NCBI GenBank assembly: GCA_017504655.1
Contig: JAFVQT010000045.1
Span: 1-61,692 of the forward strand
Direction: 5' to 3'
DNA length: 61,692 bases
Source of the DNA: Clostridia bacterium
GTDB lineage: Bacteria; Bacillota; Clostridia; Christensenellales; Borkfalkiaceae
Below are positions 42,078 to 44,327 of the stretch, piece by piece (within the stretch, counting starts at the first letter, position 1; the number at the start of each line of letters is the position of its first letter). Under the pieces are notes generated by a model. The model saw only the letters and a list, made by a program, of their open reading frames with translations. It searched no databases and was not told where the DNA came from. The position numbers were made by a program, and so were the translations under genes.

Positions 42078-42908
42078 TTATTTAAGACTGTCCATTAAGC
42101 TGTCTAAAGCAGTTTCAAATTTTACACCGTACCAATGGTCTTTATCCCCATACGTATTCTCTATACATTTTAAAGTGTAATCAGCGGCGATTTTAGCGCT
42201 TTCAAAAAGAGATTTACCTCTAATATAAGAGCCTACGAATGCTGAAGAATATACGTCACCCGTGCCGTGACAACCCTTTTCGAATTTTTTGTGCTTATAA
42301 TACTGTTTTTTACCGCCTTCATATACGACAACACCCGTGCTTTGACTGTCATATCCAATACCGGTTAAAACTACTGTTTTTACTCCCGTTTTTTCAAGCG
42401 CTTTTAAAACGGCATCAACGTAAGCCTCGTCGTAAATTTCTCTATACTCAATACCCGTCATAAAGCAAGCCTCGGTGATATTGGGTATAATTACGTCGGC
42501 AACACTGCAAAGTCTTGACATTTCGTCTGCATAAGCTTGGTCAAAAATAGAATACAGCTTACCGTTGTCGCCCATTGCAGGGTCAACTATAAGTTTTGCC
42601 CCGTCCTTTAAAAGCTCCCTTTGCATTCGTTTCACGTATTCAATTTGGTCAATACTGCCTAAATAACCCGTATAAATACAGTCAAATGAAATGCCCTCGG
42701 CTTTCCAATGGTCAATAATTTTTGGCATATCTCCCGTCAAATCTCTGAACGTAAAGCCCTTAAAGCCCGCCGTATGAGTCGACAAAACAGCTGAGGGCAT
42801 AATGCACGTTTCGATTTTACAAGCGGATAAAATAGGAAGAGCGACGGTAAGCGAGCACTGACCGAAGCACGATACGTCTTGAACTGTTAAAACCCTTTTG
42901 TAATTCAT
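42078..42908 (-). CDS. Pyridoxamine/pyridoxal kinase (PdxK/PdxY-like)
   Basis: About 276-residue ribokinase-fold kinase in vitamin B6 salvage. QDVSCFGQCSLTVALPIL, ALSTHTAGF (here SAVLSTHTAGF) and the anion-hole KGCHGTGDVYSSAF motif with catalytic Asp are visible. The C-terminal NTYGDKDHWYGVKFE is typical of the Firmicute members that act on pyridoxamine. I chose the ATG at 42908, with GAGG six bases upstream. It may be read together with the MATE gene. Confidence 0.88.
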   Translation of the reverse strand: MNYKRVLTVQDVSCFGQCSLTVALPILSACKIETCIMPSAVLSTHTAGFKGFTFRDLTGDMPKIIDHWKAEGISFDCIYTGYLGSIDQIEYVKRMQRELLKDGAKLIVDPAMGDNGKLYSIFDQAYADEMSRLCSVADVIIPNITEACFMTGIEYREIYDEAYVDAVLKALEKTGVKTVVLTGIGYDSQSTGVVVYEGGKKQYYKHKKFEKGCHGTGDVYSSAFVGSYIRGKSLFESAKIAADYTLKCIENTYGDKDHWYGVKFETALDSLMDSLK

Positions 42909-43439
42909 AATAAACCTCACTAAATCAGCAATATTTTACTACTTTAAAATGTACGTGTCAATTTAATTATTATGCAAATAAAAAATATAAATATTTTTCA
43001 TAATTTAAACATATTTTATATTCAGCAGACAGCCGTAAAAAAGCGCAGCGACAGTTCGCTCTTCCCGTAGGGAATAGCGACAACTAAATAAATCCTTACG
43101 GATTTGTGATATTCGTCAAGGGCGAGTGATATTGCCTACGGCAGTGTAGCCGAGCAAACTTGTTTGCGAACGCCAACTGCCTTTGCAGTTATATTCGCCT
43201 ACGGCGAGTTATGGATTTATTTAATATAACTTTGGCGTAGCCAAAATAAAACTGCTTGTAGAACAAGCAATATAACTTTTAGCCACAAGGCTAAAAATAT
43301 CACTTATTTACCTTAATCTTTTGTGGTAAAGATAAAGCCCACCATATTTCGCTTTTTGCGAGGTATAGTGGGCTATACTTTTGTTATGGACTAAAATCCC
43401 TAATAGAAGAGCGCATATTCGCTGCGCTTTTGCTTTTAG
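42909..43439. other. Gene-free region with hairpin array and two large hairpins
   Basis: No credible coding frame. 42940-43020 is AT-rich and is probably the promoter region of the pyridoxamine kinase gene. 43047-43296 is an array of about ten hairpins (listed separately). 43336-43376 is a 17-bp stem of AGCCCAC... with GTGGGCT and a five-T loop; 43410-43427 is an AGCGCA/TGCGCT hairpin before the uppP stop. The last could serve as its terminator only weakly, because the T-run is on the plus strand. Confidence 0.8.
43047..43296 (+). repeat. Array of about ten short hairpins spaced by ATATAAC / GTGATATT linkers
   Basis: In order: AGCG-CGCT (43047-43060), TTCCC-gta-GGGAA (43062-43074), AAATCC-ttac-GGATTT (43090-43105), ATTCGTC-GGCGAGT (43110-43126), ATTGCC-tac-GGCAGT (43131-43145), GCAAAC-tt-GTTTGC (43154-43167), AACTGC-cttt-GCAGTT (43175-43190), ATTCGCC-tac-GGCGAGT (43193-43209), TTTGGC-gta-GCCAAA (43231-43245), TGCTTGT-aga-ACAAGCA (43253-43269), TTTTAGCC-acaa-GGCTAAAA (43277-43296). 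The stems differ in sequence but share tri- or tetraloops and linkers. An AAATAAATCC / GGATTTATTT pair (about 43085-43095, 43212-43221) brackets the inner part. Confidence 0.85.
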
Positions 43440-44327
43440 TTACGGAATAAGAAAAATTATAAGCAGAATTACGCCAAGCGCAATTCTATACCAGCCAAAG
43501 ATTTTAAAATCGTGCTTTCTGACGAAATTCATAAGCATCTTTATTGCAAGCATAGACACGACGAACGCAACGAGCATTCCAAGGAGTAACGCCCAGATTT
43601 CAACAGCTGCAAACGTACCTCCGTCTAAAATAAATTTCAAAATCTTAAATCCGCTTGCGCCTACCATGGTTGGAATTGCAAGGAAAAAGGTAAATTCGGC
43701 AGCAGACGTACGCGACACACCGAGTATTAGCGCGCCAATTATGGTAATTCCCGAGCGCGACGTGCCGGGAATTGCTGCTAAAACCTGAAAGCATCCTATT
43801 AAAAATGCAGTTTTATAAGAAAGCTCTGCAACGTTTTGCGTTTTGGGTGTCTTGTTTTTATTGAATACCTCAATTACTATAAATACTACACCGTATAAAA
43901 TTAAGGTTGATGCAATAATCACGGTTTCAACGGTTGCGTTTAACCCGTCGAAAAGCTCGTCTATAAAAATTGCAAGCAATGCAGGAACACATGCAACTAT
44001 TACCTTGCACCACATAGAAAGAACGTCTTTTTTGAAAACGATTTTCCTCTTTTCAATTTGACTTCCCTCTTCCGACGCTGCTAAGCCAAGTGGGAAAATT
44101 CTTTTAAAGAATACAACGACTACGGCAAGTATTGCGCCAAACTGTATTACGTAATCAAATACTGCAGGGAAACCCTCTGAAAATTTATCCGACCAAAAAA
44201 CCCCGCCAAACTTTTCCCAAAGGTTTTCAAAAACCATCATATGTCCCGTGCTGGATACGGGAAGCCACTCCGTTATACCCTCGATAATACCGATAAGCAC
44301 GATTTTTAATACGTCTAAAAATTCCAT
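43440..44327 (-). CDS. uppP: Undecaprenyl-diphosphatase
   Basis: 295-residue membrane enzyme of the BacA/UppP family that recycles the lipid carrier for peptidoglycan and other wall polymers. GIIEGITEWLPVSSTGHMM at residues 12-30 holds the conserved Glu pair, and PGTSRSGITI near 177-186 the second active-site motif. About eight hydrophobic segments are present. Resistance to bacitracin follows from high dosage in some species. It is a single-gene unit here. Confidence 0.96.
   Translation of the reverse strand: MEFLDVLKIVLIGIIEGITEWLPVSSTGHMMVFENLWEKFGGVFWSDKFSEGFPAVFDYVIQFGAILAVVVVFFKRIFPLGLAASEEGSQIEKRKIVFKKDVLSMWCKVIVACVPALLAIFIDELFDGLNATVETVIIASTLILYGVVFIVIEVFNKNKTPKTQNVAELSYKTAFLIGCFQVLAAIPGTSRSGITIIGALILGVSRTSAAEFTFFLAIPTMVGASGFKILKFILDGGTFAAVEIWALLLGMLVAFVVSMLAIKMLMNFVRKHDFKIFGWYRIALGVILLIIFLIP

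What the first reader, a model, noticed from the sequence alone, without database searches (positions are those of the whole stretch)
43047..43296. Ten or more different mini-hairpins in a row with common linkers
Over about 250 bp, stems of 4-8 bp with three- or four-base loops (tac, gta, aga, cttt, acaa) follow each other. They are separated by linkers of the ATATAAC and GTGATATT type. Stems do not share sequence, so it is not a simple tandem repeat; the rule appears to be structural. An outer AAATAAATCC/GGATTTATTT pair and GTGATATT/AATATCAC pair bracket parts of it. It is neither a CRISPR nor a known terminator cluster. It could be a repeat nursery, a nucleoid or recombination site, or a structured RNA.
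Basis: seen in the sequence. Interest (0 to 1): 0.6.

Follow-up and report, generated by a model that had tools for sequence, protein, structure and literature searches.

The report
Hairpin-array mobile element in terminator loop
The run of mini-hairpins is the signature part of a small jumping DNA element, dozens of copies of which sit in or behind gene terminators of gut Clostridia, and whose complete relatives carry a gene for a 'four-helix bundle' protein of unknown function; one piece of it had been catalogued as an RNA (Gut-1) without this context.

Summary
In detail: 11 perfect hairpins in 250 bp against a shuffled mean of 3.4 (maximum 8). It is not unique. The array is Rfam Gut-1 (RF01706) plus its 3' half, repeated about 20 times in this genome and 1-23 times in 56 of 151 genomes of the family. 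Linkers are uniform within an element (left GTKATATT, right its reverse complement). Stems are interchangeable modules. Other elements obey the same rule with other linkers.

The element is mobile. At the window locus four relatives have an empty site, and one has an element in the opposite orientation. A related 670-bp element lies beside an unfilled duplicate of its own site: insertion at TA in a terminator loop, TA duplicated. Terminator-arm flanks occur in 57% of ORF-less copies against 2.6% of swapped controls.

Complete copies encode an S23/23S_rRNA_IVP four-helix-bundle protein (dN/dS about 0.06) directly 3' of the array. The window copy lacks it and is best read as a non-autonomous derivative. 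Stems hold 0.6% G-T pairs against 7.9% in tRNAs of the same loci, and the S23 promoter lies 3' of the array. I therefore favour a DNA-level role over a Gut-1 RNA gene. How it transposes is unknown.

The parts
43039..43051 (.). left arm of the host terminator (AAAAGCGCAGCGA), pairs with 43419-43431; the element sits in its loop
   Evidence: 13-nt perfect complement; relatives have a plain terminator with a 4-nt loop
43052..43418 (+). whole element as inserted, ORF-less copy; exact TA duplication not preserved here
   Evidence: no element in the orthologous spacers of G001, G003, G004, G006; occupied in opposite orientation in G002
43055..43081 (+). left-end hairpin (hairpin 0, TTCGCTCTTCCCGTAGGGAATAGCGAC), holds the left terminal inverted repeat
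   Evidence: same position in family-1 copies
43081..43152 (+). match to Rfam RF01706 Gut-1 (51.3 bits, gathering cut-off 50)
43086..43095 (+). AAATAAATCC, 5' partner of both the local GGATTT (43100-43105) and the distal GGATTTATTT; replaced by ATATTTGCC/GGCAAATAT in sister elements
43090..43105 (+). hairpin 1 (AAATCC-TTAC-GGATTT)
43106..43113 (+). left linker GTGATATT
43126..43133 (+). left linker GTGATATT
43133..43143 (+). hairpin 3 (TGCC-TAC-GGCA)
43144..43187 (+). extra nested palindromic module (GTGTAGCCGAGC...GCGAACGCCAACTGC), present in this copy and in C12, absent in the other copies compared
43188..43195 (+). left linker GTTATATT
43195..43207 (+). hairpin 4 (TCGCC-TAC-GGCGA)
43213..43222 (+). 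GGATTTATTT, distal partner of 43086-43095; centre of the array, where linker orientation flips
43223..43230 (-). right linker AATATAAC (reverse complement of GTTATATT)
43231..43245 (+). hairpin R1 (TTTGGC-GTA-GCCAAA)
43245..43252 (-). right linker AATAAAAC (variant)
43253..43269 (+). hairpin R2 (TGCTTGT-AGA-ACAAGCA)
43269..43276 (-). right linker AATATAAC
43277..43296 (+). hairpin R3 (TTTTAGCC-ACAA-GGCTAAAA)
43296..43303 (-). right linker AATATCAC
43336..43384 (+). conserved 3' hairpin with T-run (AGCCCACCATATTTCGC...GCGAGGTATAGTGGGCT ATACTTTT); occupies the place of the S23 ORF in ORF-less copies
   Evidence: present in ORF-less copies; sequence reading
43396..43413 (-). right terminal inverted repeat (ATCCCTAATAGAAGAGCG)
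   Evidence: sequence reading; similar end in the S23-carrying element of G004 (...AAATCCCTATGGGAAACGCCCT)
43419..43431 (.). right arm of the host (uppP) terminator (TCGCTGCGCTTTT)

Best explanation
It is a non-autonomous (ORF-less) copy of a mobile element whose complete relatives carry an S23/23S_rRNA_IVP four-helix-bundle gene, inserted in the loop of the uppP terminator. SHOWN: dispersed copies; empty sites in relatives; insertion at TA with TA duplication in a terminator loop, for an S23-carrying copy beside its own unfilled duplicate; terminator-arm flanks for most ORF-less copies; one anatomy (hairpin 0 - left linkers with hairpins - centre - reverse-complement linkers with hairpins); S23 ORF 3' of the array under strong purifying selection. 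INFERRED: the element moves by cut-out or copy-in at TA in hairpin loops, helped by S23 plus a recombinase or polymerase not yet identified. Also inferred: the array works as DNA, its linkers being repeated, oppositely oriented protein-binding sites (S23 the first candidate) held apart by arbitrary palindromes that can extrude when single-stranded. The palindromes may be kept perfect by template-switch copying within the hairpin rather than by RNA selection. Inserting in terminator loops and bringing a 3' terminator-like hairpin would keep transcription termination intact, which makes the insertion tolerable.
For: Copies: own genome; 22 RF01706 matches at E <= 0.005 in 1.78 Mb; 56/151 genomes, 1-23 copies; exact centre motifs in 22 and 16 of 151; 72/396 genomes of the order, many families. 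Empty and filled sites; S23-carrying element with unfilled paralogous site AAAAAAGGTAGCCGTT-TA-AGACTACCTTTTTT, 670 bp, in G004. Terminator targeting: flank complementarity >=8 nt in 57% of 21 ORF-less copies versus 2.6% of swapped flanks, 0/1000 permutations. S23 link: PF05635 loci with arrays directly 5' (strict automatic test 11/21 versus 1/51 downstream control); eight or more family-1 copies carry S23; dN/dS median 0.06 over 28 pairs. DNA-level: G-T 3 versus Watson-Crick 499 in array stems, 111 versus 1294 in tRNAs, p = 6e-12; covariation score 0.79 versus 0.22 shuffled, 0/500; 9/17 S23 promoters lie 3' of the array, several with the -35 box against the last linker; left and right linkers show no one-to-one pairing pattern (by eye).
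Against: No S23 gene, IS630-type transposase (DDE_3) or reverse transcriptase was found in the window's own genome, so the agent that moved its copies is unknown, or lost in assembly gaps, which fall in these repeats. The window copy does not keep an intact TA duplication. Outer mismatches in extended stems lean to G-T over A-C (14 versus 4), which would favour RNA. In other genera arrays sit behind tRNA terminators, and I did not establish the ends of that form. Only 6 of 59 Gut-1 loci in mixed genera have S23 within 700 bp, so most copies are ORF-less or differently arranged. S23 was never shown to bind the array.
Confidence: 0.8

Rival explanations
1. It is a non-coding RNA gene (Gut-1, as published): the hairpins act as a trans-acting or scaffold RNA and its many copies are ordinary paralogues.
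For: Rfam match above cut-off; strong covariation; outer mismatches lean to G-T over A-C, 14 versus 4.
Against: Copies polymorphic at orthologous sites and in both orientations; TA duplication; almost no G-T pairs inside stems compared with tRNAs; no promoter above chance 5' of the window array; S23 promoter lies 3' of the array.
Confidence: 0.12
2. It is a mobile element, but the array acts as RNA: a transcript of the element (own or read-through) folds, binds S23 and is copied back into DNA by a reverse transcriptase supplied in trans, as in diversity-generating retroelements where the S23-like Avd partners the RT.
For: S23/Avd relationship (PMC10053308); 4 versus 0 and 14 versus 4 bias for G-T over A-C; arrays behind tRNA terminators lie on the tRNA strand.
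Against: RVT_1 found in only 4 of 17 array-rich genomes versus 3 of 17 without Gut-1 matches, and not in the window's genome; scarcity of G-T pairs; S23 promoter 3' of the array.
Confidence: 0.2
3. It is a plain miniature inverted-repeat element of an IS630/Tc1-like transposon (TA target); the S23 array is only cargo.
For: TA duplication and terminal inverted repeats.
Against: No DDE_3 domain in 34 genomes including 17 array-rich ones; S23 strongly conserved inside the element; arrays with S23 also occur behind tRNA genes without these terminal repeats being apparent.
Confidence: 0.15
4. It is a dispersed terminator or nucleoid-binding repeat kept by selection for transcription termination or chromosome organisation.
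For: Often in or directly behind terminators; terminator-like hairpins inside.
Against: Empty sites keep plain terminators; patchy presence across close relatives.
Confidence: 0.05

Closest known systems
Gut-1 RNA, Rfam RF01706 (Weinberg et al. 2010, PMC2864571)
   Same: Same sequence: the model covers hairpins 1-3 and the linkers between them; the window copy is above the cut-off.
   Different: Published as a non-coding RNA found only in human-gut metagenomes. Here it is the left half of a longer array, multi-copy, in or behind terminators, adjacent to S23 genes in complete copies, in many families of the order.
23S rRNA intervening sequences (IVS) with S23/IVP ORF (Coxiella, Leptospira, Salmonella; PMC4990558)
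   Same: Encodes the same protein family (PF05635/TIGR02436), inserted in hairpin loops, sporadic distribution; mobility long suspected.
   Different: Sits in loops of terminators or behind them, not in rRNA helices; complementary words are packed with hairpins 5' of the ORF instead of flanking it; the window copy has no ORF.
Bacterial MITEs and modular repeats (BOX, Correia/NEMIS, ERIC; from general knowledge)
   Same: Short, non-coding, dispersed, terminal inverted repeats, TA target, module gain and loss.
   Different: Array of arbitrary perfect palindromes with one linker word per element; autonomous relative carries S23, not a known transposase.
Avd of diversity-generating retroelements (PMC10053308)
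   Same: S23-type relationship reported in the literature.
   Different: No reverse transcriptase in the own genome and no correlation of RT with arrays.
Group IIC introns (from general knowledge)
   Same: Target terminator hairpins.
   Different: No RT domain found in the own genome; insertion is at TA inside the loop, not after the stem.

Membership tests
Gut-1 RNA (RF01706) | Covariance-model score at or above the gathering cut-off | tested here: met
   51.3 bits versus 50
Gut-1 RNA (RF01706) | Expressed as a structured RNA | tested here: inconclusive
   No expression data; G-T wobble almost absent in stems, no promoter above chance 5' of the array, but outer-mismatch bias 14 versus 4
S23/IVP element (IVS-like) | Encodes PF05635 four-helix-bundle protein | tested here: not met
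   Absent from the window copy and the own genome; present in complete relatives with the same array and similar ends
S23/IVP element (IVS-like) | Located in 23S rRNA helix loops | tested here: not met
   Located in a uppP terminator loop; other copies in terminators
S23/IVP element (IVS-like) | Excised by RNase III | not testable with these tools
   needs biochemistry
MITE (non-autonomous mobile element) | Multi-copy, short, non-coding, polymorphic insertion | tested here: met
MITE (non-autonomous mobile element) | Terminal inverted repeats and target-site duplication | tested here: met
   Family level: TA duplication shown at G004 against its unfilled paralogue and readable at G002, C12, L237. 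At the window itself terminal repeats yes, TA not intact
IS630/Tc1-mariner derivative | Cognate DDE transposase in array-bearing genomes | tested here: not met
   0 of 34 genomes with PF13358
Diversity-generating retroelement | Reverse transcriptase with template/variable repeats | tested here: not met
   No RVT_1 in the own genome, no correlation in 34 genomes
CRISPR / REP-RAYT | Identical repeat units, or a Y1 transposase with GTAG-type hairpins | not tested
   Units share linkers, not stems, which excludes CRISPR by inspection; Y1 domain not searched

The most novel reading that the evidence does not exclude
A new kind of mobile DNA in which the information is written in structure. Each element carries one private linker word, repeated on the left half and reverse-complemented on the right half, separating arbitrary perfect palindromes that act as DNA, not RNA. 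It uses a small S23 protein rather than a classical transposase to enter hairpin loops of terminators, the same trick by which S23 elements enter rRNA helices. Gut-1 and rRNA intervening sequences would then be faces of one class of hairpin-loop-targeting elements.
Probability: 0.35. Interest if true: 0.9.

Novelty: new variant of a known kind. Interest (0 to 1): 0.72.

Why it matters
It gives a published orphan RNA (Gut-1) and a very common orphan protein family (S23/IVP, 'four helix bundle protein', relative of Avd) a shared context: an element caught inserting at TA in terminator loops. The long-standing question whether S23-bearing intervening sequences are mobile becomes directly testable, because filled and empty sites, boundaries, a 670-bp complete element and a structural rule are now in hand. 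It also warns that covariation alone does not prove RNA function: here stems covary almost without wobble pairs.

Tried and rejected
Chance hairpins: rejected by shuffles. CRISPR or simple tandem repeat: units share no stem sequence. tRNA/tmRNA in the window: none. One-to-one pairing of left and right linkers: not supported on inspection, the G/T and C/A variants do not match up. Promoter driving the window array: none above chance on the + strand. IS630-type helper: absent. Reverse-transcriptase helper: no correlation. Phage carriage: no S23 relative of this type in IMG/VR. Generality of the array beyond the order: at phylum level only 3/30 S23 loci passed the array test, and by eye these are low-complexity word repeats, not hairpin arrays; those loci instead have complementary word arms flanking the ORF (21/30 versus 5% control). 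Stable UNCG/GNRA tetraloop excess: not found; the commonest loops are pyrimidine-type loops closed by C-G, such as C(TTC)G and C(TTAC)G. Literature searches for S23 plus terminator or MITE found nothing linking them; the library lacks most subscription papers and preprints, so prior description cannot be excluded.

Full report
1. The observation. Reading 43047-43296 gives 11 non-overlapping perfect hairpins against a mean of 3.35 and maximum of 8 in 500 dinucleotide shuffles, and the stretch is the most hairpin-rich 250 bp of the window. Linkers and the two bracketing pairs are as described. The feature is larger than stated: it runs from about 43052 to 43418 and lies in the spacer between a Phos_pyr_kin/PfkB-type kinase gene (42078-42920, -) and uppP/bacA (43440-44327, -).

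2. It is a repeat. BLAST of the 264-bp stretch against the own genome returns many partial copies, several at contig ends, where assemblers break on repeats. Rfam names one part: Gut-1, RF01706, 43081-43152. The Gut-1 model finds 22 matches at E <= 0.005 in this 1.78-Mb genome, 1-23 per genome in 56 of 151 genomes of the family and matches in 72 of 396 genomes of the order. Exact 19-23-mers of the array centre occur in 22 and 16 of 151 genomes. Presence is patchy even inside the genus.

3. Anatomy. In family-1 elements (52 copies) the order is: hairpin 0; C-AACTAAATAAATCC (or AACTATATTTGCC); hairpin 1; three left linkers GTKATATT with a hairpin after each; centre GGATTTATTT (or GGCAAATAT); then right linkers AATATMAC with hairpins R1-R3 between them. 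Each slot holds interchangeable hairpins with unrelated stems (R2: TTTTAGACTTGCTCTAAA, GCAAAACTTGTTTTG or TGCTTGTAAAACAAGC). The window copy and C12 carry an additional nested module that a G002 copy lacks. The same genome holds elements with linkers GTGAAGTT/AACTTCAC and GTATATCATC/GATGATATAC; relatives use GTGAAAT, TGATAT, AATGATGT, GAATTG and others. The rule is one word per element, repeated left and reverse-complemented right, with arbitrary palindromes between. An alignment of 49 arrays shows near-invariant linkers and freely covarying stems.

4. It moves. At the window locus G001, G003, G004 and G006 have no element in the spacer, with a plain uppP terminator readable in G001 and G003; G002 has an element in the opposite orientation. 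Whether G002 is an independent insertion or an inversion is open. In the window the element is bounded by AAAAGCGCAGCGA and TCGCTGCGCTTTT, the arms of a terminator. Across 21 ORF-less copies with both ends, flanks are complementary over >=8 nt in 57% against 2.6% for swapped flanks (0/1000 permutations). The clearest case is G004: a 670-bp element lies in AAAAAAGGTAGCCGTT-TA...TA-AGACTACCTTTTTT, and about 180 bp further on the same contig has the unfilled duplicate AAAAAAGGTAGCCGTTTAAGACTACCTTTTTT. Hence insertion at TA in the terminator loop with TA duplicated. TA duplications can also be read at C12, G002 and L237. In the window itself the TA pair is no longer intact.

5. Complete copies encode S23. 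The G004 element carries, 3' of the array, a 117-residue protein matching PF05635 (23S_rRNA_IVP), TIGR02436 (four helix bundle protein) and PDB 2rld. At least eight family-1 copies carry it; their pairwise dN/dS has a median of 0.06. Conversely, of 21 PF05635 loci in the family and order, 11 pass a strict automatic array test in the 420 bp upstream, against 1 of 51 downstream controls; by eye about 18 have an array. In many of these loci the array starts right behind the terminator hairpin of a tRNA gene; among 59 Gut-1 loci, 30 have a perfect >=7-bp hairpin directly 5' (5% at random positions) and 16 follow a tRNA gene. The window copy has instead a conserved terminator-like hairpin where the ORF would be. 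The own assembly has no S23, but its contigs end in these repeats, so loss in assembly is possible.

6. DNA or RNA? Gut-1 was described as a non-coding RNA (PMC2864571). Three facts argue for DNA. (a) In 11 well-aligned stem pairs over 49 arrays there are 499 Watson-Crick and 3 G-T pairs (0.6%); in tRNAs from the same loci 1294 and 111 (7.9%), p = 6e-12. In distinct family-1 hairpins 467 Watson-Crick, 4 G-T, 0 A-C. (b) In 9 of 17 S23 loci with arrays a strong sigma-70-type promoter lies 3' of the array, in several with its -35 box abutting the last linker, so the array is not the S23 leader there. (c) Family-1 copies lie in both orientations relative to the host gene (window versus G002). Against: outer mismatches lean to G-T (14 versus 4). 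Perfect palindromes without wobble intermediates can also arise by template-switch correction of hairpins during replication (general knowledge), which would need no RNA selection. Linkers showed no one-to-one pairing between halves on inspection, so they look like repeated, oppositely oriented sites rather than helix strands.

7. Mechanism, with what is shown and inferred. Shown: mobility, target, boundaries, S23 linkage, structural rule. Inferred: S23 or a partner recognises linkers; hairpins extrude when the DNA is single-stranded; insertion uses hairpin loops as targets; an unknown enzyme does the strand chemistry. No DDE_3 domain was found in 34 genomes, and reverse transcriptases do not track with arrays. 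S23 relatives of this type were not found in viral contigs.

8. Comparison. Intervening sequences of 23S rRNA carry S23, have complementary ends and replace loops of rRNA helices; mobility has been suspected (PMC4990558). S23 loci elsewhere in the phylum show complementary word arms flanking the ORF in 21 of 30 cases against 5% in swapped controls, one of them (L345) inside a 23S rRNA gene by reading of its flanks. The window-type elements share protein and hairpin-loop habit but differ in site, in packing both word sets into a hairpin array 5' of the ORF, and in abundance. I therefore call it a new variant of a known kind, and do not file the window copy as an IVS.

9. Verdict. Observation confirmed; published RNA label covers only part and probably misnames its nature; best reading is an ORF-less S23-family mobile element in a terminator loop (0.8), with the DNA-level role of the array as the less certain part.

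Noticed in passing
G000:C37:33327 (L064), C37:20150 (L065), C49, C14, C1, C24:26994, C62, C66, C7: Second family in the same genome with linkers GTGAAGTT/AACTTCAC and its own terminal repeats (core CTTAACGGAGAA); the two C37 copies also lie in terminator loops with TA on both sides.
   Followed up: partly
G000:C5:31310-31385 (L082): Third family with linkers GTATATCATC/GATGATATAC, same rule; its S23-carrying relatives are at L257 and L262.
   Followed up: partly
window 43144-43187; G000:C35:6876-6905 (L045): A separate palindromic module (GGCGTTCGC...GCTCGGCTA) is nested in the window array and also occurs next to a hairpin in C35: repeats inside repeats.
   Followed up: partly
L345 (23S rRNA), L327-L336, L346: S23 genes elsewhere in the phylum are flanked by arms made of short repeated words and their reverse complements (e.g. 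GTTGGAAA...TTTCCAAC).
   Followed up: partly
G642:C12:24-613; G044:C17:51991-52276: Gut-1 arrays in tandem or in alternating orientation within a few hundred bases.
   Followed up: no
L271 (G086:C18): A copy without the right terminal repeat, flanked by a direct duplication of roughly 45 bp that includes one terminator arm: a possible second insertion route or later rearrangement.
   Followed up: no
L215, L241, L082 right flanks: T-arm-like tRNA fragments (GGTTCAAATCC) follow some arrays, as if the tRNA-associated form carries or splits a tRNA 3' end.
   Followed up: no
G159:C52:387 (L263) and C46:395 (L264): Two rRNA operons of one genome end in the same tRNA-Asn but carry different S23 arrays in front of the same downstream terminator.
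   Followed up: no
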